A DNA stretch of 55,959 nucleotides from a virus, in IMG/VR virus record IMGVR_UViG_3300036791_000391, positions 1 through 55,959 of that record; one strand, 5' to 3'. The position numbers and the translations under genes were made by a program. Position 1 is the stretch's first letter. Each line of letters begins with the position of its first letter. The notes under the pieces were generated by a model. That model had not been told where the DNA came from. It saw only the letters and a list, made by a program, of their open reading frames with translations, and searched no databases. Shown here in pieces: positions 4,984 to 54,617 of the stretch.

Positions 4984-5694
4984 ATGGTGATTCGTCAGGC
5001 GGTTGAGAAGCTGGAAGGACCGGAGTTCGTCGCCGCGCAGGCCCGGGCGTGGACGGACATCCGGGAGTTTGTCGAGGAGGCGGTGCTGCCGGTCGTGCAG
5101 AGCGAGACGGGCGGCAGCGTCAACGGGCCGGGCTCCTCCTTGGGGTGCACCACGGGGCTGGTTGCCGACCTGCCCGAGTTTTGGAGGCGGCACGGTATCT
5201 CTTCACTCCTCGACGCGCCCTGCGGCGACTGGACGTGGATGCAGCACGTGGACCTGACCGGGGTGATCTACGTCGGCTGGGACTGCGACGAGGAGCTGAT
5301 CCGGCGCAACCGGGAGCGTTTCGAGCGGCGCGGTGATGGCCGGATGGCGTGGTTCTTCTGCCGGAACATCCTGACCATCCACAAGCTGCCGATCATGGAC
5401 GCGGTCTTCTGCCGGGACTTCCTCGCCCATCTCCCGACCGAGCACATCGTGGACGTGCTGGCCAAGTTCCAGGCCAGCCGCTGTACCTACTTGATGGCGT
5501 CGAACTATCCCGGCGTGAGCAATGAATTCGAGTACCACCCGGAGAACTTCGCCTGGCTGGGCTACTGCGAGCGCCCGCACGATCTTGAGGCGGCACCGTT
5601 CCACCTCTCCAAGATCGACGCCCTGCCCGAGATCGCGGGACCGGGCGGGGTCATCTCCCTCCCGCACGAGCTGGCCCTGTTCCGGCTGAACTGA
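4984..5694 (+). CDS. Class I SAM-dependent methyltransferase
   Basis: The product has 236 residues from MVIRQAVEKLEG. Motif I is LLDAPCGDWTWM, the following acidic strand end is YVGWDCDEEL, and FCRDFLAHLP fits motif IV. The target is unknown; small molecules, sugar or protein are all possible, and no DNA-recognition domain is visible. It is the first gene of a two-gene rightward island inserted in the leftward head operon, so it probably has its own promoter. An in-frame extension to 4897 is open but looks non-coding. Confidence 0.85.
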   Translation: MVIRQAVEKLEGPEFVAAQARAWTDIREFVEEAVLPVVQSETGGSVNGPGSSLGCTTGLVADLPEFWRRHGISSLLDAPCGDWTWMQHVDLTGVIYVGWDCDEELIRRNRERFERRGDGRMAWFFCRNILTIHKLPIMDAVFCRDFLAHLPTEHIVDVLAKFQASRCTYLMASNYPGVSNEFEYHPENFAWLGYCERPHDLEAAPFHLSKIDALPEIAGPGGVISLPHELALFRLN

Positions 5695-15402: not shown

Positions 15403-16500
15403 CTAGCTCTGCGGCGTGTCCCGCTGCCGGATGATCTCGCGCATCAGCCAGGGTCGGCCCTGGGCGACGCGGTAGATGTCGATGAGCCCCGCGTTCCGGC
15501 TCCGGTCCCGGGACCAGCCCTCGGAGTCCGCGATGGCTCCGTGATAGACCTGAGCGTTCTGGTTGTGCTCGAAGGCGTACGCGTGTCCCGTGAGCCGACG
15601 AGCCCGGGACAGTGTGGAGACGATCATGGTGAACGCGGTGTCCTCCCAGCCCCACCCGATGAACTCCGGCGGCTGGCCCCCGAGCCGCCAGTACTCCTCC
15701 TGGGTGGTGATCAGGCAACCACCGACCCCGAGCACGCCCGCCCCGTCCCAGGCGGTCATGTACGGGGCGTTCACCAGCGCGGCCATCGGAGTGTTCAGGT
15801 AGTCCGTGCTCAGGATGCGGTACTGGTTGAACGGCCACCAGACACCCCCGGGATCGGCCACCGACCGGAGCACGTTCAGCGGGTCGATCAGGGTGTCCGC
15901 GTCGGCGATGATGACAACGCTGGTTGTCGCTTTTCGGACGGCGTTGTTCCGGGCCTGGCTGAGCGAGAAGATCGGGGTTTCGGAGTCGGCGGTGACCATC
16001 GGCCAGCCGAACATGGCCCAGAACCGCTGCACCCGATCGAACGCGGCCTGTCTCGACGGCGTGGGCCGCCACGGAATGCACACCGTGGCGGCCAGGCGAG
16101 GTCTCAGCTCCGGCATCAGCAGCGCGGGCTGGGCCAGGTTCAGGGACCGCTTCGGGGTGGACCAGCCGCGCTTGCGCGCCTCCTCGTCGGTGGCGAACAG
16201 GATGAGGTTCTGCCGGATGGGCCAGTCGATGCGCTGGTCCCACCAGATCCGGTCCCGGATCAGGTCGTACGGCTGGTACCCGAAGGTGGCGAAGATGCGT
16301 GCCCACCAGCTCGGCCGGTGATCGCCCACCGTCGCGAACGCGACGACACCCCCGGGTCGGCATAGCGTCTCCACCCGAGCGCGCGCGGTCCGCCCGGTGA
16401 AGCGTTCCCCAGGTTTCAGGCAGTCGAGCGTGAACACCGGGCCGACCAGCTCATCCAGGATCGGCACCACGGCAGCCACCGAGCCCTCAGAGACCGACAC
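15403..16500 (-). CDS. Family 2-like glycosyltransferase with a truncated methyltransferase head
   Basis: About 365 residues from GTG near 16500 (start uncertain; the frame is open to 16572). Residues ~20-110 look like the back half of a class I methyltransferase: LCRPGGVVAFATVG, SWWARIFATFGYQPYDLIRD, W.IRQNLILFA. Its SAM-binding motif I is missing. From ~130 a GT2 domain follows: CIPWRP, ARNNAVRKA, VVIIADADTLID (DxD), GGCLITTQEEYWRLGG, IGWGWEDTAF. A recombination joint inside the gene is likely. Confidence 0.75.
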   Translation of the reverse strand: MSVSEGSVAAVVPILDELVGPVFTLDCLKPGERFTGRTARARVETLCRPGGVVAFATVGDHRPSWWARIFATFGYQPYDLIRDRIWWDQRIDWPIRQNLILFATDEEARKRGWSTPKRSLNLAQPALLMPELRPRLAATVCIPWRPTPSRQAAFDRVQRFWAMFGWPMVTADSETPIFSLSQARNNAVRKATTSVVIIADADTLIDPLNVLRSVADPGGVWWPFNQYRILSTDYLNTPMAALVNAPYMTAWDGAGVLGVGGCLITTQEEYWRLGGQPPEFIGWGWEDTAFTMIVSTLSRARRLTGHAYAFEHNQNAQVYHGAIADSEGWSRDRSRNAGLIDIYRVAQGRPWLMREIIRQRDTPQS

Positions 16501-17122
16501 CACCACAGTGCAGATACTTCCAGGGCCCGGCTCCGGGCTCGGCCCGCCACACCGACCGGATCGTGGGCACATCCACTAGTCGCCATCCGGCCTCCACCAG
16601 CCGGAAGCACACATGCACATCCGCACCCCAGTGCTGGTAGTCGCCGTGGCTGTAGGGTCGGGTGGCGAGGGCGTCGGTCCGGGCCGCGAACACCCCGCCC
16701 TGAATATGACGGTTGAACAGGTCGGCGGGGAAGCCGTACGACTCCGGCGGGCCGCTGTCCTGCAGGCAGCCGGTCATCGCCACCTGATCGTCGGTGAACG
16801 GGGCCAGTAAGTCCCCGATCCAGGTCGGGTCGAATGCTTCCCCGTGGTTAGCGCACACGTACACCAGGTAGCGATGCCGGGCCAGGCTCACGGCGAAATT
16901 GATACCCGGCCCGTACATCAGGTTGCCCGGCGTCCACACGTACCGGTACGGCAGGCCGTTACCGGCGACTGCGGTGGCGAGCCGCTCCAGCCGGTCGGGG
17001 CTGTTGTCGATGACGATCAGTTCCGCGCCGTCGATCAGCCGAAGCGCGGGCATCAGGTCCCGGTGCAGCCGGGTCAGCGCGGCGTCCTCATTGCCGAAGG
17101 GCACCATCACGGCGGTCAGCAC
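16487..17122 (-). CDS. Family 2-like glycosyltransferase
   Basis: The product has 211 residues (GTG start, or ATG at 17107). MVPFGNEDAALTRL, ELIVIDNSPD, TPGNLMYGPGINFAVSLA and YLVYVCANHGEAFDPTW fit a GT-A nucleotide-sugar fold in which the usual DxD is replaced by N-H-G. GGVFAARTDAL and GADVHVCFRLVEAGW follow. It overlaps both neighbours. With 15403 and 17116 it forms a sugar-transfer and methylation cluster; substrates could be phage proteins or host glycans. Confidence 0.75.
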   Translation of the reverse strand: MLTAVMVPFGNEDAALTRLHRDLMPALRLIDGAELIVIDNSPDRLERLATAVAGNGLPYRYVWTPGNLMYGPGINFAVSLARHRYLVYVCANHGEAFDPTWIGDLLAPFTDDQVAMTGCLQDSGPPESYGFPADLFNRHIQGGVFAARTDALATRPYSHGDYQHWGADVHVCFRLVEAGWRLVDVPTIRSVWRAEPGAGPWKYLHCGGVGL

Positions 17123-17649
17123 TTGACCGCCAGCCCGTAAATGTCGCCCGGGGTGTCGGTGTCGATCAGCACCACCCCGAAGTCGCGCAGCCAGCGCCGC
17201 AGGTCGTCCCGGCTGACATTGCGGTAGAACTCCAGCATCCCGTCGCTGTCGACGGCGCGCAGCGGACCGCCGTCGACAGCGCTATGTGGCGCCCGGCCCT
17301 CCCCGGCGGCGGTCAGCAGGAACACCCCACCGACTTTCAGCAGCCGGTGCGCGTTGGCGCAGATCGCCTCGGCGACGGGGGTGTGCTCCAGGGTTTCGCA
17401 GCACACCACGGTATCGACGTCCGTGAAGACGTAGAACGGCCAAATGGCCGCGTCGGCGACGACATCGACGTTGGGACCGGGCGCGATGTCCACCCCGACA
17501 TAGCTATCCACGTCGCCGAACAGCGGGCGCACCGGACCGGAATACGGCCAGTCACCGGCCACGGTTCGGCTACCCAGCTCGATCACCGAGTGCCGTGGAT
17601 CGAGCTGGGCCACGGTGGATTCGATGAACTTGAACGCGCCCTCATGCAT
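17116..17649 (-). CDS. Class I methyltransferase (Methyltransf_11-like)
   Basis: The product has 177 residues. Motif I is VIELGSRTVAG, motif II YVGVDIAPGPNVDVVAD, then TVVCCETLEHTPVAEAICAN and LLKVGGVFLLTAAGEG. Small-molecule or sugar methylation fits its glycosyltransferase neighbours. It overlaps the next gene by 7 nt. Confidence 0.85.
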   Translation of the reverse strand: MHEGAFKFIESTVAQLDPRHSVIELGSRTVAGDWPYSGPVRPLFGDVDSYVGVDIAPGPNVDVVADAAIWPFYVFTDVDTVVCCETLEHTPVAEAICANAHRLLKVGGVFLLTAAGEGRAPHSAVDGGPLRAVDSDGMLEFYRNVSRDDLRRWLRDFGVVLIDTDTPGDIYGLAVKC

Positions 17650-18623: not shown

Positions 18624-18989
18624 TCATGCCATGACCCGATTCCGTGGTCGTCGCTGACGGTTCAGCCGGGCCCGGATCACGCGGCGCTCCTTCTCGCTGG
18701 TGCCGCCCCAGATCCCGTACCGCTCATCCAGGTTGTGGTCCAGGCAGTCGGCGGTCATCGGGCACCGGCGGCAGATCCGGCGGGCCAGCTCGGCACCCGG
18801 GTTGTCGCCTTTGCTGGGGAAGAACGTCTCGGGATCGGACTCGGCGCACAGCGGCCGGAACTTCATCCAGCTGACGGGCAGCGGATCGCCGACCTCCTCG
18901 CCCTTCACGCCGCCCTCGATCAGCCCCGGCCCGGGCCGTATCAGCCGGTGAATGCTCCACGGCGGGTCGTCGTAGTCGTAGTAGCTCAC
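18624..18989 (-). CDS. WhiB-family iron-sulfur transcription regulator
   Basis: The product has 121 residues from a GTG overlapping the previous stop. The four cluster cysteines are in LCAESDPETFF, ICRRCPMTADCLDHN, followed by the G[I/V]WGG turn (YGIWGGTSEKER) and a basic C-terminus RARLNRQRRPRNR. WhiB proteins bind 4Fe-4S and the host sigma factor. Phage copies can rewire host genes and cause superinfection exclusion. It is confined to actinobacteria and their phages. Confidence 0.93.
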   Translation of the reverse strand: MSYYDYDDPPWSIHRLIRPGPGLIEGGVKGEEVGDPLPVSWMKFRPLCAESDPETFFPSKGDNPGAELARRICRRCPMTADCLDHNLDERYGIWGGTSEKERRVIRARLNRQRRPRNRVMA

Positions 18990-21824: not shown

Positions 21825-22790
21825 TCACCTCGGGATCTGGATGAGCGGGGTGCCGCCGATCTGCCCCCAGCACCCGGCCGGGTCGCGACCTGCCTTCACC
21901 GAGTCGTTGACGCAGTTCGACACCGCGATCCGCAGGTCCGGTGGTGGCTGCATGGCACGCTGTTCAGCGGCAAGGCGGTACTGCTCGGCCGTCTTAACAT
22001 CCTGGGCGGCGTTCAGCGTCTCCTGCACCTTCTGGTTGTAGGCGTCAATACGCTGCTGGGTCGGCTGGTCGTAGAAGATCCGGGGAATCCGCACGTCCAG
22101 GATCTCGATCTCGGTGCCCACCGCATCTTGGAGATCCTTCTTCACCTGGCCCGCCAGCGTCGGCAGGTCGGCGCCCTGCGTCGGGGCCATCGCCTGCGGC
22201 GGCGCGCCGGGCGTGTTGGCCTGGGCCGCGAGCATGATCTGCGGGTTGAACGTGGCGAAGGTCTTGGCCAGCGCCACCTGGGCCTGCCGGTCCACCAGCT
22301 GCTGCTTGATGGTCTCGAACACGTTCTGACCGCCGTAGTCCTGGAACAGCTTCGGGGCGGCGCCCTCGCGCAGCCGCCAGTTCAGGTTCTCCGCGACATA
22401 GGCGTTGGAGTTGTTCGCCAGCCGCACGCTGATCGCCGCCGCGTTGTTATCACTGCCCTGGCCCTTGGCGGCGTCGTCGTAGGAGTTCGACTCAAACGCC
22501 TGCAGCTGGATGGTCTCGGGCAGCTCGGAGAGCTTGCGCCACGGGTTGTGCCACGCGATGCCGGGGCCGTGGATGCCCACCGGCCTGCCGAACTCCGTGA
22601 TGATCCCGACGTTGCGGGTGTCCACCCGGTCGTAGCAGGAGATGATCACGAACACCAGGCTGACGAAAGCCAGTACTCCGGTGACGATCACGCCGATGCC
22701 TCTCGCGTCGGCCGACGCGAACACCGTGACCGCCGCCGCGATGAGCGCGAAGACGAAGAACACGAGGGACGCGATGAACCATCCGGGCAT
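21825..22790 (-). CDS. SPFH/band-7 (prohibitin-like) membrane protein
   Basis: The product has 321 residues. Two N-terminal membrane helices (IASLVFFVFALIAAAVTVF; VIVTGVLAFVSLVFVIISC) precede the SPFH domain: RNVGIITEFGRPVGIHGPG, LNWRLREGAAPKLFQDYGG, IEILDVRIPRIFYD and an alanine-rich NAAQDVKTAEQYRLAAEQRA helix. SPFH proteins form ring- or cage-like scaffolds on membranes and can control proteases. In an actinophage it may remodel the host membrane or guard against other phages; that is inference. Confidence 0.88.
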   Translation of the reverse strand: MPGWFIASLVFFVFALIAAAVTVFASADARGIGVIVTGVLAFVSLVFVIISCYDRVDTRNVGIITEFGRPVGIHGPGIAWHNPWRKLSELPETIQLQAFESNSYDDAAKGQGSDNNAAAISVRLANNSNAYVAENLNWRLREGAAPKLFQDYGGQNVFETIKQQLVDRQAQVALAKTFATFNPQIMLAAQANTPGAPPQAMAPTQGADLPTLAGQVKKDLQDAVGTEIEILDVRIPRIFYDQPTQQRIDAYNQKVQETLNAAQDVKTAEQYRLAAEQRAMQPPPDLRIAVSNCVNDSVKAGRDPAGCWGQIGGTPLIQIPR

Positions 22791-22812
22791 AACCGATTCC
22801 TTTCGTTGGTGA

Positions 22813-23004
22813 TTACTCCCCGACCCGTTGCCGGGGAGTCGCCGCGCGCAGCAGCGCGAACGGATACGGCAGGGTGAGGTCGTAGCGCACCCGCCAGCGC
22901 ATCGGCCCGCACCACTCGACCCAGCCGTTGCTGGTCATCGCCAGCACGGAGCCCCGCCGCCAGCGCGGGTCAGCTGGCCCCTCGGGCTTGTGATGGCCGG
23001 TCAC
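22813..23004 (-). CDS. Small basic protein, 63 aa
   Basis: The GTG start overlaps the previous stop. TSNGWVEWCGPMRWRVRYDL is followed by PYPFALLRAATPRQRVGE. Strand-rich; unknown. Confidence 0.6.
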   Translation of the reverse strand: MTGHHKPEGPADPRWRRGSVLAMTSNGWVEWCGPMRWRVRYDLTLPYPFALLRAATPRQRVGE

Positions 23005-23192
23005 GGCACCAGCCCCTTGCGCCGAGCCCAGCTCACGATCTTCTGGTAGCAGTCGTCGCAGACCACGTCCACGTCGTCGGGGTCCTTCCCGAACGTCTTT
23101 CGGTACTCGTCCTCGATGTGCTCCTGGCTCCACCCGGGCTCGCGCTCGAACGTCCCGCCGCAGGCCGCGCAGGTGAACTCGTTCTCGCTCAC
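23001..23192 (-). CDS. Zinc-ribbon protein, 63 aa
   Basis: FTCAACGGTFERE and VVCDDCYQKIVSWARR give a two-CxxC ribbon with a helix EHIEDEYRKTFGKD between. GTG start and GTGA overlap on both sides. Confidence 0.75.
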   Translation of the reverse strand: MSENEFTCAACGGTFEREPGWSQEHIEDEYRKTFGKDPDDVDVVCDDCYQKIVSWARRKGLVP

Positions 23193-23665
23193 GACGGCCA
23201 CGGCCTCGGGTGTGCGGTGGCGGGCGCGTGCAGGACGTGCCGGGGTGAGCCGTCGTGGTTGGTGCCGATGCACATCAGCGGGAACACCCCCGGCAGTGGT
23301 GGGGCCGCCTCGACCGCCCGGGAGCGGCCCCAGGCCGCCACGGTGATCGGGTCGTCCTTGGCCCGGGACAAGTAGCTCAGGTTCTCCGGGCCGTACGGGT
23401 CGTCCACCCGCATCAGGTCGCCCGGGTCGGTCGCGCGGTACGCGAACCGGTTCCGGATGACGATCCCGGCGTAACCCCAGGCCAGCGCGTAGTTCACGCA
23501 GCGTTGCCCGGTCGCGCCGATCCGCACGTGCTCCGGGTCGTGATCGGCCGCGATCTCCTCCCGCGACGGGTTCAGCAGGATCCAGCCGCACACCGCGCCG
23601 GGAGCCCACTGGTACGTCAGCTCGTACTGGTACCGGTTGTCCTGCGACCGTGCGGCCCAAATCAT
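23189..23665 (-). CDS. DUF1643-family protein
   Basis: The product has 158 residues from MIWAARS. The family pattern is clear: GWILLNPSREEIAADHDPEH, CVNYALAWGYAGIVIRNRFA, YRATDPGDLM and ITVAAWGR. DUF1643 occurs in phages and bacterial accessory regions; its biochemistry is unknown to me. An upstream extension in this frame is non-coding. Confidence 0.85.
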   Translation of the reverse strand: MIWAARSQDNRYQYELTYQWAPGAVCGWILLNPSREEIAADHDPEHVRIGATGQRCVNYALAWGYAGIVIRNRFAYRATDPGDLMRVDDPYGPENLSYLSRAKDDPITVAAWGRSRAVEAAPPLPGVFPLMCIGTNHDGSPRHVLHAPATAHPRPWPS

Positions 23666-24156
23666 ATGTAGCCCAACGCATTTGACGGACCGAATTGGGT
23701 CACTGTCATGGTGATCTCGCCGGTCTCCTTGTTCTGGTCGTACTTGGTCACCGTGCCGACGATGATCTCCCCGTCCTTGGTCTGGAACCCCACCCGGGAG
23801 CCCTCGTGGATGCGTGGCATGTTCCGGAACGGCGTGGCGTCCTCGTCGGCGAACGGACGGCCCGATCGGGACTGGTGATCGCCGCTGTGACCGGCGGGCA
23901 GTGCGCAGGACGAGCCGCGCAGGGCGGGGAGCGCGCCGCTGTAGTGCGCCTCGCACGCCGGGCCGAAGACCGGGTTGGACGTGTGCCTCAGTGGCGCGCG
24001 CTCGATGTACTCCTGCGGGGTGACGATGGAGATACCCGGCCCCATGTACATCCCGCAGGAGTGACAGCCGATCCCGGTGCCCTCACGGATCATCTCGGCC
24101 CCGCAGTTCGGGCAGGTCATGTCCGTGCCACCCCGTCCCGCCGGGGTCCACGTCAT
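23662..24156 (-). CDS. Zinc-ribbon protein with GHxGDH motif
   Basis: The product has 164 residues from MTWTPAGRGG (overlaps previous stop). CPNCGAEMIREGTGIGCHSCG is a ribbon; ISIVTPQEYI follows; CALPAGHSGDHQSRSGRPF carries the C-x4-GHxGDH motif seen in other small proteins here. The C-terminal half (VGFQTKDGEIIVGTVTKYDQ) looks like an SH3-type barrel. Confidence 0.75.
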   Translation of the reverse strand: MTWTPAGRGGTDMTCPNCGAEMIREGTGIGCHSCGMYMGPGISIVTPQEYIERAPLRHTSNPVFGPACEAHYSGALPALRGSSCALPAGHSGDHQSRSGRPFADEDATPFRNMPRIHEGSRVGFQTKDGEIIVGTVTKYDQNKETGEITMTVTQFGPSNALGYI

Positions 24157-26775: not shown

Positions 26776-26936
26776 CGGGTCGCCCTCCCGGGCCGTCCCT
26801 GCTGCATCCGCACCAGCGCGTACCGGACGCCGGTCTTACTCATCCCCAGCGCCTTCCCGATCTGCGCGTACGTGTAACCCTTCCGGCGCAGTTCCAGAAT
26901 CAGCCGGTCCTTCTCGGCGGCGGATCGCTCGGTCAT
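26772..26936 (-). CDS. Small helix-turn-helix protein (resolvase-type), 54 aa
   Basis: The peptide runs MTERSAAEKDRLILELRRKG, then YTYAQIGKALGMSKTGVRYA. The second part is a clean helix-turn-helix like the C-terminal domain of Hin-type invertases or small Cro-like regulators. It could be a local repressor, or bind the dyad operators; nothing in the sequence shows which site. Confidence 0.75.
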   Translation of the reverse strand: MTERSAAEKDRLILELRRKGYTYAQIGKALGMSKTGVRYALVRMQQGRPGRATR

Positions 26937-27577
26937 CTCGGCCTCAATTGTCCGGCCAGCCGTCTGGCCTCGGCCATTTCCTCCGGCGTGATGTCCCCGG
27001 CTCGCACCCGCCGGAACGCCCGAATCATCGGCTCCATCACCTCACGCTCCTCACCGGCCTCGATGGCGGCGTCGATCATCTCCACCATCTCCGGCGGCAG
27101 GGTATGGCCCAGCGCCATACCCGAGTACATCGCGTGCGCGAAGCGACCGCTCATCCGCTCGTTTTCGCCGGTCACCCACTCGCCCAGCGTGACGGCACCG
27201 TTCTCCCGGATGACGGGTGCGCTGTGAAACTGTTGACCACCGTCGGCCCCGGCGTGGATCACGAAGACGGTCTCGGCGCGCGCAGGGTGCTCCTCGAAGT
27301 TGCGGTTGCCCCACTCGGCGCGCTCCTCGGGCGTTATCCCGAGCAGCGTCCAGGCCATGGTGCCGAACACCGCCTCGGTGGCGCGATGCATGGCCAACGA
27401 CGCCATCATCACCTCCGCGATGGCGTCGCGCGGCTTGCCGAACTCCGGCATGTCCAGGGCCATGTAGACCCTCGCCTTGGGGCCATCGAACAGCATGAAC
27501 GGCATGAAGTCGTCGTCGCCGTGCAGGTCCGAGACCTCTCGGGTGATCTGCTTTCGGGCATCATCGAGCAGGCTCAT
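26933..27577 (-). CDS. Paralogue family protein, 214 aa
   Basis: DDFMPFMLFDGPKARVYMAL, RATEAVFGTMAWTLLGIT, AETVFVIHAGADGG and LPPEMVEMIDAAIEAGEE align in order with the protein at 51829-52491 (DDIMPILLWLGPHG, QATECVTVTTGYMAMV, AVILMCSDRRGRGG, MPPELVEIIEEGWEIG). No catalytic motif recognised. Two copies in separate operons suggest duplication with divergence. Confidence 0.8.
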   Translation of the reverse strand: MSLLDDARKQITREVSDLHGDDDFMPFMLFDGPKARVYMALDMPEFGKPRDAIAEVMMASLAMHRATEAVFGTMAWTLLGITPEERAEWGNRNFEEHPARAETVFVIHAGADGGQQFHSAPVIRENGAVTLGEWVTGENERMSGRFAHAMYSGMALGHTLPPEMVEMIDAAIEAGEEREVMEPMIRAFRRVRAGDITPEEMAEARRLAGQLRPR

Positions 27578-51603: not shown

Positions 51604-51832
51604 CGTTCTCCTTATCCTCGGCGGCCTGAACCGCACCGATCACGGCGTCTGCCTGTTGCAGAATCAGCCTGATTTCCCGCTCCATGTGCCGCAGCATCTC
51701 GCTGGGCTTGGTCAGCCCGTGGGTGTCCGCCCGTTTAGCCAGCGTGCCGAACTGGGCCGCGAGCGAGCCCATCCCGGGTGTCATCGACGCCAGGCTGTCC
51801 CGGGCCATCTGGCATAGCCCCTCGGCGGTCAC
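51593..51832 (-). CDS. Small helical protein, 79 aa
   Basis: CQMARDSLASMTPGMGSLAA, then MLRHMEREIRLILQQADAVI. Unknown; overlaps both neighbours. Confidence 0.65.
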   Translation of the reverse strand: MTAEGLCQMARDSLASMTPGMGSLAAQFGTLAKRADTHGLTKPSEMLRHMEREIRLILQQADAVIGAVQAAEDKENDGR

Positions 51833-52491
51833 CGATCCGGCCCGCCCGGTCCGGTGAGATCCCGGTTGAACCCCTCCGCGACGTTCACGAACCGCTCGAT
51901 CAGGTTCTGCACCGCCTCCGGGCCGATCTCCCAGCCCTCCTCGATGATCTCCACCAGCTCCGGCGGCATCTCCCGGACGATCTCCAGGCCCAGCGCCATC
52001 GCCTCCCCGAACCGGCCACCGACCTTCGGGCCGACCTCCAGACGCGAATCGATCCAGTCGCCCAGCGTGGGCGGCTTATCCGGGTACCGAGTCAGCGGGG
52101 CGTGAACCATTCCGCCCCGGCCGCGCCGATCCGAGCACATCAGGATCACCGCCTCGGTCCGGTCGGGGCGTTCCCGGATCGGTGTGGTGACCGTGCCCCG
52201 GGAGACATCCACGTCGGGGTCGTCCCGGTCCACCATGGCCATGTACCCGGTGGTGACCGTGACGCACTCGGTGGCTTGACCCACGGCCAGGGTGGCGGTG
52301 ATCCACCTAGCGAGCTTGTCCTTGGCCTCGTCGTCCTTCATCAGCTCGCCCATCGACATCAGCCCGGGGCCGTGCGGCCCTAGCCACAGCAAGATCGGCA
52401 TGATGTCGTCGTCGGGGTCGGTCAGCCCCTCGACACACTCCCGGGAATGCGTCTTGGCGTGCTCGACCAAATCGGGCACGGATGGGGCCAT
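51829..52491 (-). CDS. Paralogue of 26933-27577, 220 aa
   Basis: Co-linear with the 214-aa protein of the other operon (DDIMPILLWLGPHG, QATECVTVTTGYMAMV, TLGDWIDSR, MPPELVEIIEEGWEIG). Here it is the first gene after cassette I, whereas the other copy is deep in an operon. No known fold recognised. Confidence 0.8.
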   Translation of the reverse strand: MAPSVPDLVEHAKTHSRECVEGLTDPDDDIMPILLWLGPHGPGLMSMGELMKDDEAKDKLARWITATLAVGQATECVTVTTGYMAMVDRDDPDVDVSRGTVTTPIRERPDRTEAVILMCSDRRGRGGMVHAPLTRYPDKPPTLGDWIDSRLEVGPKVGGRFGEAMALGLEIVREMPPELVEIIEEGWEIGPEAVQNLIERFVNVAEGFNRDLTGPGGPDR

Positions 52492-52636: not shown

Positions 52637-52972
52637 TCAGCTGTACTCGGGGCAGAAGTGCCACTCCGCACCCATCACCATCGCGATGATCTGCTCGGCG
52701 GTGTAGTCGTCAGGTGAGTACGCAAGTTCGCGCTCCACCTGCCGCCTGCTGTAGCCCTCATACCGTTCCGCGCAGAGCCGTGAGCCGAGGTCAGCAGCAT
52801 TCCATTGATCCTCGTGGCGGAGGCCCGCGTACCTCAGCTCGTCCCGGTAGTTGACGGCGCTGTGGTCACCCTGGGCACCGATGGTCGCGATGGTGGCCCC
52901 TGCGGGTGACGCCATCGCGATACCAAGCGAGACCATTCCGGCGGCGAGACCGCCCAGGATCACCCGGCGCAT
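52637..52972 (-). CDS. DUF732-like secreted protein 3
   Basis: The product has 111 residues. Signal peptide MRRVILGGLAAGMVSLGIAM then ASPAGA. The mature part has YRDELRYAGLRHEDQWNAAD, LGSRLCAERYEGYSRRQVE and a C-terminal WHFCPEY; two cysteines probably disulphide-bonded. DUF732 is a small exported family of mycolate-containing actinobacteria. Confidence 0.8.
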   Translation of the reverse strand: MRRVILGGLAAGMVSLGIAMASPAGATIATIGAQGDHSAVNYRDELRYAGLRHEDQWNAADLGSRLCAERYEGYSRRQVERELAYSPDDYTAEQIIAMVMGAEWHFCPEYS

Positions 52973-53367
52973 CAGACCGTGCTCCCATTGCTCGGTGGGC
53001 CGATTGGTTCTAGTGCGTGTCCGATCAGCCAGGGGCAGTACGCCCCCTCCGCTGCGCCGACAAAATACAGCGAGTCCGCAAGCGGTAGGAATCCGCCATT
53101 TGAGGTGGACCACCGGCCGATCCTCCGGGCCTCATCCGGCACAGTGATCCCGGTGGACAGGTCCAAGCAGACGTTGTGCGCGGTATTGATCAGGGTGTAA
53201 TCCTCCCCGTGCAGGGCAGTGAGCCCGTCATCAGCCATCGCCGCCAGGAACGCGGCGTCATCGGAGTCAGCGTGTGCAACACCGATACCAGACCCCATCA
53301 GGCCTGAGAAAGGTAAGACCGCAATACCGACTGCGGCCACTACCTTCAGGATGGTTACCCGGCGCAT
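52972..53367 (-). CDS. DUF732-like secreted protein 2
   Basis: The product has 131 residues. Signal peptide MRRVTILKVVAAVGIAVLPF with AHADSDD cleavage region. FLAAMADDGLTALHGED, AHNVCLDLSTG and a late AEGAYCPWL fit the family (D..FL..L...GI...G..VC..L...A...YCP). TGATG coupled to both sister genes. Confidence 0.82.
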   Translation of the reverse strand: MRRVTILKVVAAVGIAVLPFSGLMGSGIGVAHADSDDAAFLAAMADDGLTALHGEDYTLINTAHNVCLDLSTGITVPDEARRIGRWSTSNGGFLPLADSLYFVGAAEGAYCPWLIGHALEPIGPPSNGSTV

Positions 53368-53747
53368 CAGACGCTCCCCACCATGGTGGCGGGGCTCGGG
53401 GAGTCGATCACGGCCTGCCAGGCGGTGGGGCAGAACACGATGGCCGCGTCCTCCACCTGATCCAGCATGTTCTGGTAAGTCATGGGGAGGCTGGGCGACC
53501 AGTTGTAATTGGCGATCCGGTGGGCATCCCAACCGTTGTAGCGCATCTCAGCGCAGACCGTGCCCGCAAATCTAATGGCCTGTGACGTGTCGGTGACCGT
53601 GAGACCGTCGTTGTTCATCATCTGCAGATAGACCAGGGTGTCATGGTCGATGGGCGCAGCGCTCGCCGACCCGGCGAGGGTGATCCCGGTGGCCATCGCC
53701 CCCACGATCCCGAGGGCGGCGATACCGCCCCTGACACTGTTCTTCAT
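53367..53747 (-). CDS. DUF732-like secreted protein 1
   Basis: The product has 126 residues. Signal peptide MKNSVRGGIAALGIVGAMAT then GSASAAPIDHD. LVYLQMMNNDGLTVTDTSQA, AGTVCAEMRYNGWD and AIVFCPTAWQA. GAAAGGAAG precedes the ATG. First and best preserved of the triplet. Confidence 0.85.
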   Translation of the reverse strand: MKNSVRGGIAALGIVGAMATGITLAGSASAAPIDHDTLVYLQMMNNDGLTVTDTSQAIRFAGTVCAEMRYNGWDAHRIANYNWSPSLPMTYQNMLDQVEDAAIVFCPTAWQAVIDSPSPATMVGSV

Positions 53748-53848: not shown

Positions 53849-54013
53849 TCAGGCCATCACCTCCTCCCGGTTCCGGCGCACCCACGCGGGGAGCTGCGCG
53901 GAGCCGACGCAGTCACACTGGTCGGAGGTATCGGCCTGCGATGGCCATGTCCATACGAGCGCCGATGCTGCGACAGCGGCGCTCGCCAACCACACCTTGC
54001 CCTTACCGTTCAT
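53849..54013 (-). CDS. Small secreted protein, 54 aa
   Basis: MNGKGKVWLASAAVAASALV followed by WTWPSQADTSDQCDCVGSAQ: signal peptide, then a short mature part with CxC. The start overlaps the previous stop; an in-frame extension to 54043 is not needed. Confidence 0.7.
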   Translation of the reverse strand: MNGKGKVWLASAAVAASALVWTWPSQADTSDQCDCVGSAQLPAWVRRNREEVMA

Positions 54014-54159
54014 CGGATAACGCTTCTGTAAAGCGCCTTGCACTCGTGCCCGAAGCCGATGGCTTCGAGCGGGCCGTCAACGATGACTCCGCAATGCTCG
54101 CACTCGTAATCCTCGTATACGACGTACCCGTTCGTAATCCAGTCTGCGGTGTCCACCAT
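54010..54159 (-). CDS. Small zinc-knuckle protein, 49 aa
   Basis: MVDTADWITNGYVVYEDYEC followed by EHCGVIVDGPLEAIGFGHEC: C-C-H-C. GGAAGG precedes the ATG. ATGA overlap with the next gene. Confidence 0.7.
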   Translation of the reverse strand: MVDTADWITNGYVVYEDYECEHCGVIVDGPLEAIGFGHECKALYRSVIR

Positions 54160-54185: not shown

Positions 54186-54221
54186 TCAAGCACTAATCGC
54201 GTACTTGGTGACATCGATCAT
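54186..54221 (-). CDS. 11-aa leader peptide of cassette G
   Basis: MIDVTKYAISA-stop starts at the exact ATG served by CAGGAGATTCGC. The next gene begins 27 nt further. A leader peptide or the stump of a deleted gene are both possible. Confidence 0.5.
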   Translation of the reverse strand: MIDVTKYAISA

Positions 54222-54302
54222 GCGAATCTCCTGGGGTTCTGGCCTGGCCCTGTGCCTGACTCTCCCCTGAGCTTAGCACAGCATTCTAGCGCGCTACCAA
54301 TT
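54222..54302 (-). promoter_or_regulatory. Promoter/operator/UTR cassette G
   Basis: Leftward AATTGGTAGCGCGCTAGAAT from 54302, the only perfectly palindromic dyad (TAGCGCGCTA). GTGCTAAGCT is the extended -10-like element. UTR loop GGC-ACAGG-GCC with weaker arms, then CCAGGAGATTCGC before the ATG at 54221. Confidence 0.75.
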
Positions 54303-54350
54303 AACCCGCCGTTTGCTGTGTCTTCCCCATCACAGTCCTATGCTGGTGTC

Positions 54351-54617
54351 GTGGTTAGCTACCGCGCGATGCACGCCCGGCTGGCGGTCGTGAAGGGACC
54401 GGCCAGGGCGCAGCGCTGCGCGTGCGGGCGGCGGGCCTCGCACTGGTCCTACAGCCGAGCCTGCCCGGATGAGTACTTCTCCCTCTCCGGCCCCTACTGC
54501 GCGCACCCCGGCCATTACAGCCCGATGTGCGGGCGCTGCCACAAGCGGTACGACCTCCGGGCCGCCCAGCTCGATAAAGCGTTGCACCGCAAGCCGAACC
54601 AGCTTCTACTCTGGTAG
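54351..54617 (+). CDS. HNH-like zinc protein, possibly leaderless
   Basis: The product has 88 residues from the GTG at 54351 (VVSYRAMHARL). KGPARAQRCACGRRASHWSY, then YSPMCGRCHKRYD: a C-x-C...W...C-x2-CH pattern of small phage HNH-related proteins. TATGCT lies 7 nt before the GTG with no ribosome site, consistent with a leaderless message. Confidence 0.7.
   Translation: MVSYRAMHARLAVVKGPARAQRCACGRRASHWSYSRACPDEYFSLSGPYCAHPGHYSPMCGRCHKRYDLRAAQLDKALHRKPNQLLLW

What the first reader, a model, noticed from the sequence alone, without database searches (positions are those of the whole stretch)
52637..53747. Three tandem DUF732-like exported proteins in a phage
Three TGATG-coupled genes each have a signal peptide and the C...YCP/FCP family pattern but little identity, behind a small exported CxC protein. 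Host proteins of this type sit at the mycobacterial cell surface. A phage set of three could alter receptors or block superinfection, and may have been copied from the host.
Basis: partly seen in the sequence, partly recalled or inferred. Interest (0 to 1): 0.72.

Follow-up and report, generated by a model that had tools for sequence, protein, structure and literature searches.

The report
Phage cassette of three exported DUF732 proteins
A soil phage of probable mycobacterial hosts carries three neighbouring genes for small exported proteins of a family (DUF732) that mycobacteria make in many copies; single copies are common in such phages and two of those slow host growth when overproduced, but three in a row is new, and their job in infection is still unknown.

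Summary
Genes B (53747-53367), C (53367-52972) and D (52972-52637), minus strand, are TGATG-coupled. All three pass Pfam's DUF732 cut-off (24.2, 46.0, 30.2 bits; cut-off 22.4), with predicted signal peptides and paired cysteines ending in YCP/FCP. Gene A (54013-53849) is a fourth small exported protein.

DUF732 in phages is not new. One DUF732 query finds 554 phage records, nearly all single copy, often beside whiB. Of 56 other DUF732-carrying virus records scanned whole, none had three, and the four pairs lay about 2 kb or more apart. Three in tandem is unusual.

The operon starts behind a leader element found six times in the window. A relative phage (G372) keeps gene B's leader DNA (76% over 79 nt, E 4e-10) but has three unrelated exported proteins there. 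The place looks like a swappable cassette of exported proteins.

Copying from a host is unproven: the best host match is 41%, and neither one origin nor several can be rejected. Superinfection exclusion is untested. In published screens two phage DUF732 proteins, Troll4 gp76 and (by my assignment) Girr gp54, inhibit M. smegmatis growth when overproduced. I favour exported host-takeover proteins acting on the cell envelope.

The parts
54208..54306 (-). repeated promoter/leader-like element at the head of the cassette operon (AATTGGTAGCGCGCTAG ... CAGGAGATTCGC-ATG)
   Evidence: Five further copies in the window, 71-78% identical: 951, 30994, 32471, 36596 and 39765 (+), each ending at or next to a called gene start; also 76% over 105 nt in relative G384. 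That it is a promoter is inferred.
54010..54159 (-). small cysteine-rich (zinc-finger-like) protein, first full gene of the operon; its stop overlaps the start of gene A (ATGA)
   Evidence: ORF and overlap read from sequence; no Pfam match over cut-off
53849..54013 (-). gene A: 54-aa exported protein with a CDC motif
   Evidence: Signal-peptide rule; no family match, no phage match
53740..53817 (-). leader DNA and start of gene B shared with relative phage G372
   Evidence: 76% over 79 nt, E 4e-10, the best hit in about 260 kb of relative phages and directly upstream of G372's first exported gene
53367..53747 (-). gene B: exported DUF732 protein, 126 aa
   Evidence: PF05305 24.2 bits over cut-off 22.4; fold model pLDDT 82 best matched by phage DUF732 models
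52972..53367 (-). gene C: exported DUF732 protein, 131 aa, TGATG-coupled to B
   Evidence: PF05305 46.0 bits; helical model pLDDT 75
52637..52972 (-). gene D: exported DUF732 protein, 111 aa, TGATG-coupled to C
   Evidence: PF05305 30.2 bits

Best explanation
Shown: B, C and D are divergent members of the DUF732 family, in one coupled operon behind a leader element that the phage uses at five other places; the locus is shared with a relative phage that carries other exported proteins there. Inferred: the operon is switched on early in infection. The four proteins leave through Sec and fold outside the membrane, B-D as small helical domains held by one disulfide. There they act on the host envelope, most likely by mimicking or competing with the host's own DUF732 proteins for a shared partner. 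The result is slowed growth or a remodelled envelope that favours the phage. Three divergent copies may address several paralogues or hosts. An altered receptor or superinfection exclusion could follow but need not be the purpose.
For: Family membership and fold. Signal peptides on four contiguous genes only. Repeated leader at the operon head. Same locus in G372 with conserved leader DNA, three other exported proteins and a whiB coupled to them. In named mycobacteriophages a single DUF732 gene sits near whiB, typically in the region that follows repressor, cro and excise genes. Growth inhibition on overproduction: Troll4 gp76, listed as DUF732, toxicity index 4 of 5 (PMC7474061); Girr gp54, score 2, a 1-3 log loss (PMC11075535), which I identify as DUF732. 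A host DUF732 protein is secreted (PMC7921967). All 41 Mycobacterium genomes sampled carry 2-31 copies.
Against: I found no function for any DUF732 protein. Overproduced exported proteins can be toxic by jamming secretion, and the Girr authors warn of artificially high protein levels. No transcription data; the leader is not proved to be a promoter. Neither model matched a solved structure credibly. The disulfide and the host partner are inferred. The three are so divergent that they may not share one role.
Confidence: 0.45

Rival explanations
1. Superinfection exclusion or receptor masking: the exported proteins stay at the surface and block adsorption or DNA entry of other phages, as phage lipoproteins such as T5 Llp or TP-J34 Ltp do (from general knowledge).
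For: Exported, small, differing between related phages and sitting in a locus of exchangeable content, as expected of exclusion genes.
Against: I see no lipobox or membrane anchor beyond the signal peptide in A-D, and there are no adsorption data. Single-copy homologues in named phages lie in the rightward region that follows repressor, cro and excise, not on the lysogenic side of the repressor. I found no paper on exclusion by a DUF732 protein in the library searched.
Confidence: 0.2
2. Host envelope genes picked up by the phage and kept as passengers, or used for host fitness, with no role in infection.
For: Host genomes carry many DUF732 genes, including close tandem pairs about 330-490 nt apart. 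Most relatives of this phage lack the family: 11 of 13 records.
Against: No close host copy: 41% at best. Intact reading frames, tight TGATG coupling, and a phage leader element at the head of the operon. Several of those 13 relatives are short fragments.
Confidence: 0.15
3. Anti-defence: the exported proteins block a host defence that senses infection at the envelope.
For: Operon behind a repeated phage leader, differing content between related phages, small proteins.
Against: No match to a counter-defence family was sought. I know of no envelope-sensing defence in mycobacteria that involves DUF732.
Confidence: 0.1

Closest known systems
DUF732 (Pfam PF05305), host proteins such as Rv3067 and MSMEG_5766
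   Same: Signal peptide, about 72-residue domain, two conserved cysteines, the second in YCP/FCP; tandem pairs also occur in hosts
   Different: The best-scoring host matches of the three are only 41%, 39% and 31% identical, and the genes lie in a phage operon
Single-copy phage DUF732 proteins, often beside whiB (PHROG 658; for example Girr gp54, Shauna1 gp55, Raymond7 gp39)
   Same: Same PHROG family; C is 34-36% identical to the Girr and Raymond7 proteins; exported; in the region after repressor, cro and excise
   Different: Three coupled copies instead of one; no whiB beside them here (the window's whiB is at 18681-18857)
Exported cassette of relative phage G372 (22664-23861, minus strand)
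   Same: Same locus, homologous leader DNA, several small exported proteins in a row
   Different: None is DUF732; one has an HEVAH metalloprotease-like motif; whiB is coupled to the last gene

Membership tests
DUF732 (PF05305) | Score above Pfam's gathering cut-off (22.4 bits) | tested here: met
   B 24.2, C 46.0, D 30.2 bits; independent profile 32.3, 54.7, 33.0 against at most 7.9 for shuffles
DUF732 (PF05305) | Two conserved cysteines, the second followed by proline | tested here: met
   Invariant C and CP columns in alignments of window, phage and host members
DUF732 (PF05305) | N-terminal signal peptide, exported | tested here: met
   Met by a simple sequence rule only; export itself is not testable here
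DUF732 (PF05305) | Family fold | tested here: met
   For B: its model is best matched by phage DUF732 models (top: TM 0.70, probability 1.00, E 0.006). C modelled as five helices but not searched in that library; D not modelled
Superinfection exclusion system | Blocks adsorption or DNA entry of a second phage | not testable with these tools
   Needs an infection assay
Superinfection exclusion system | Expressed from a prophage or early in infection, with the protein at the membrane or surface | tested here: inconclusive
   Signal peptides predicted and a repeated leader at the operon head; no transcription data, and the record is probably a fragment
Phage growth inhibitor of the host | Slows host growth when produced | not testable with these tools
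   Published for two phage relatives only (PMC7474061, PMC11075535)

The most novel reading that the evidence does not exclude
Phages of this group keep a dedicated export locus: a fixed phage leader behind which different sets of small exported effectors (DUF732 triplets, a metalloprotease-like protein, other cysteine proteins) are exchanged, together targeting the mycobacterial envelope from outside the membrane during infection.
Probability: 0.3. Interest if true: 0.7.

Novelty: new variant of a known kind. Interest (0 to 1): 0.4.

Why it matters
DUF732 is a large exported protein family of mycobacteria with no function that I could find. Phage copies with a growth phenotype give a direct handle on it. 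The locus comparison suggests that phages exchange exported proteins at a fixed site, which would make the cell envelope a target during infection and not only at entry and lysis.

Tried and rejected
Close relatives of B, C and D in viral contigs: none. Gene A in phages: no match. Solved structures by sequence or fold: nothing credible; the best fold hits (PqsE, Z 5.3, and similar) are at the level expected for any small helical domain. A remote DUF732 relation of G372's 111-aa exported protein: no support, probability under 1%. A tRNA relic in the leader, suggested by a T-arm-like stretch in G372: no support from ARAGORN or Rfam. Special RNA structure between A and B: z-score -0.2. Sigma-70-type promoters near the operon: two weak matches, not at the repeated element.

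Full report
What is there. On the minus strand, genes B (53747-53367), C (53367-52972) and D (52972-52637) overlap as TGATG; gene A (54013-53849) lies 101 bases upstream of B and overlaps the stop of the small gene at 54010-54159. B, C and D are members of Pfam DUF732. The weakest, B, is only 1.8 bits over the cut-off, so I tested it in two further ways. A profile built from other phage and host members scores B at 32.3 bits against at most 7.9 for 1000 shuffles. The predicted structure of B (mean pLDDT 82) has phage DUF732 proteins as its best matches, TM 0.70. By a simple rule, A-D are the only clear signal-peptide proteins among about 120 called genes.

The record. It is a 55,959-base IMG/VR virus record, probably a fragment, with head protein, head protease, portal and large terminase on the minus strand at 3.3-14.6 kb. 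DNA matches in known phages are short. Thirteen viral contigs encode related terminases, 53-86% identical. The host is not identified. DUF732 occurs in all 41 Mycobacterium genomes sampled, 2-31 copies each, and in 29 of 148 genomes across the class, where most carriers have only 1-2 copies. Terminase relatives in genomes of the Mycobacterium family reach 50%. A mycobacterial host is likely but inferred.

How unusual. A single phage DUF732 protein as query finds 554 phage records, 518 of them named Mycobacterium phages. DUF732 is the most abundant domain in phage whiB neighbourhoods (PMC8612146). I scanned whole records with the Pfam model: 54 known DUF732 carriers and 13 relatives of this phage. 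Of the 56 records with a match, 52 had one copy and four had two, about 2 kb or more apart (G364, MooMoo, Stormageddon, Finch). None had three and none had adjacent coupled copies. The sample leans to cluster F1, because many records were fetched with an F1 query, and at least one phage (Shauna1) is in it twice.

Origin. B, C and D are 16-28% identical to each other. C is 34-36% identical to the Girr and Raymond7 proteins. The best-scoring host matches are 41% (B), 39% (C) and 31% (D). The tree has 81 columns and long branches. Holding the three as one clade costs nothing (p-AU 0.505), nor does holding B with D (0.503); one clade of all phage members has p 0.064. So neither duplication in the phage nor separate uptake is shown; recent copying from a sampled host is excluded. 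Host genomes do contain tandem DUF732 pairs spaced much as here.

Locus comparison. In relative G372 (97 kb, terminase 77% identical), homologues of genes on both sides of the cassette (51829-52491 and 54369-54617) flank a different set on the same strand: a 111-aa exported protein with two cysteines in its mature part, an exported protein with an HEVAH motif, a 70-aa exported protein, and whiB, the last three ATGA-coupled. None is DUF732. The DNA before G372's first exported gene is the best match of gene B's leader in about 260 kb of relatives (79 nt, 76%, E 4e-10; next best 0.022). Thus the place and leader are conserved while the exported content differs. This rests on one relative phage. 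Another relative, G373, has one DUF732 gene elsewhere.

Expression. The 99-nt element at the head of the operon (54306-54208) recurs five times in the window, at 951, 30994, 32471, 36596 and 39765, each ending at or next to a called gene start, and in relative G384. It looks like a phage promoter with a ribosome-binding leader; timing is not known.

Function. Two published screens bear on it. Troll4 gp76, listed as DUF732, has toxicity index 4 of 5 in M. smegmatis (PMC7474061). Girr gp54 has cytotoxicity score 2, a 1-3 log loss (PMC11075535); the authors report one transmembrane segment and no other domain. I find that this gene encodes a DUF732 protein (66 bits), directly before whiB, and that the 'transmembrane' part fits a signal peptide. 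A host DUF732 protein was found in an M. smegmatis secretome (PMC7921967). These results support exported proteins that affect growth; toxicity on overproduction can also be an artefact of secretion. I therefore prefer a general envelope-takeover role and hold superinfection exclusion as a rival.

Shown: reading frames, coupling, family, fold of B, repeated leader, different exported content at the same locus in one relative. Inferred: export, disulfide, early expression, host target, benefit to the phage.

Noticed in passing
window 951, 30994, 32471, 36596, 39765 (+) and 54306-54208 (-): Six copies of an element of about 80-100 nt (AATTGNTAGCGCGNTAG ... GGAGATTCGC) at or next to gene starts; also once in relative G384. 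Probably a phage promoter and leader used for several operons.
   Followed up: partly
G372 22236-23861 (L205 2236-3861, minus strand): A relative phage has, at the same locus, an exported protein with a HEVAH metalloprotease-like motif and two small exported cysteine proteins, coupled to whiB. Pfam gives only a sub-threshold Peptidase_M90 match.
   Followed up: partly
window 51829-52491 and 26933-27577 (-): Two proteins of the same PHROG family (phrog_11268, unknown function) in one phage; the first is the gene directly downstream of the cassette.
   Followed up: no
window 15403-17649 (-) and 4984-5694 (+): Galactosyltransferase-like and GT2 glycosyltransferases and methyltransferases next to the packaging and head genes; possible glycosylation of virion proteins.
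   Followed up: no
window 18681-18857 (-): The window's only whiB match lies far from the DUF732 genes, unlike most of the DUF732-carrying mycobacteriophages viewed.
   Followed up: partly
L218 1923-2270 (phage Girr gene 54): Girr gp54, reported as a cytotoxic protein with one transmembrane segment and no other domain, is a DUF732 protein.
   Followed up: yes
L005 3591-3782 (phage Tortellini gp46): A 63-aa exported-looking cysteine protein sits directly before the DUF732 gene, as gene A sits before B here; similarity between the two was not tested.
   Followed up: no
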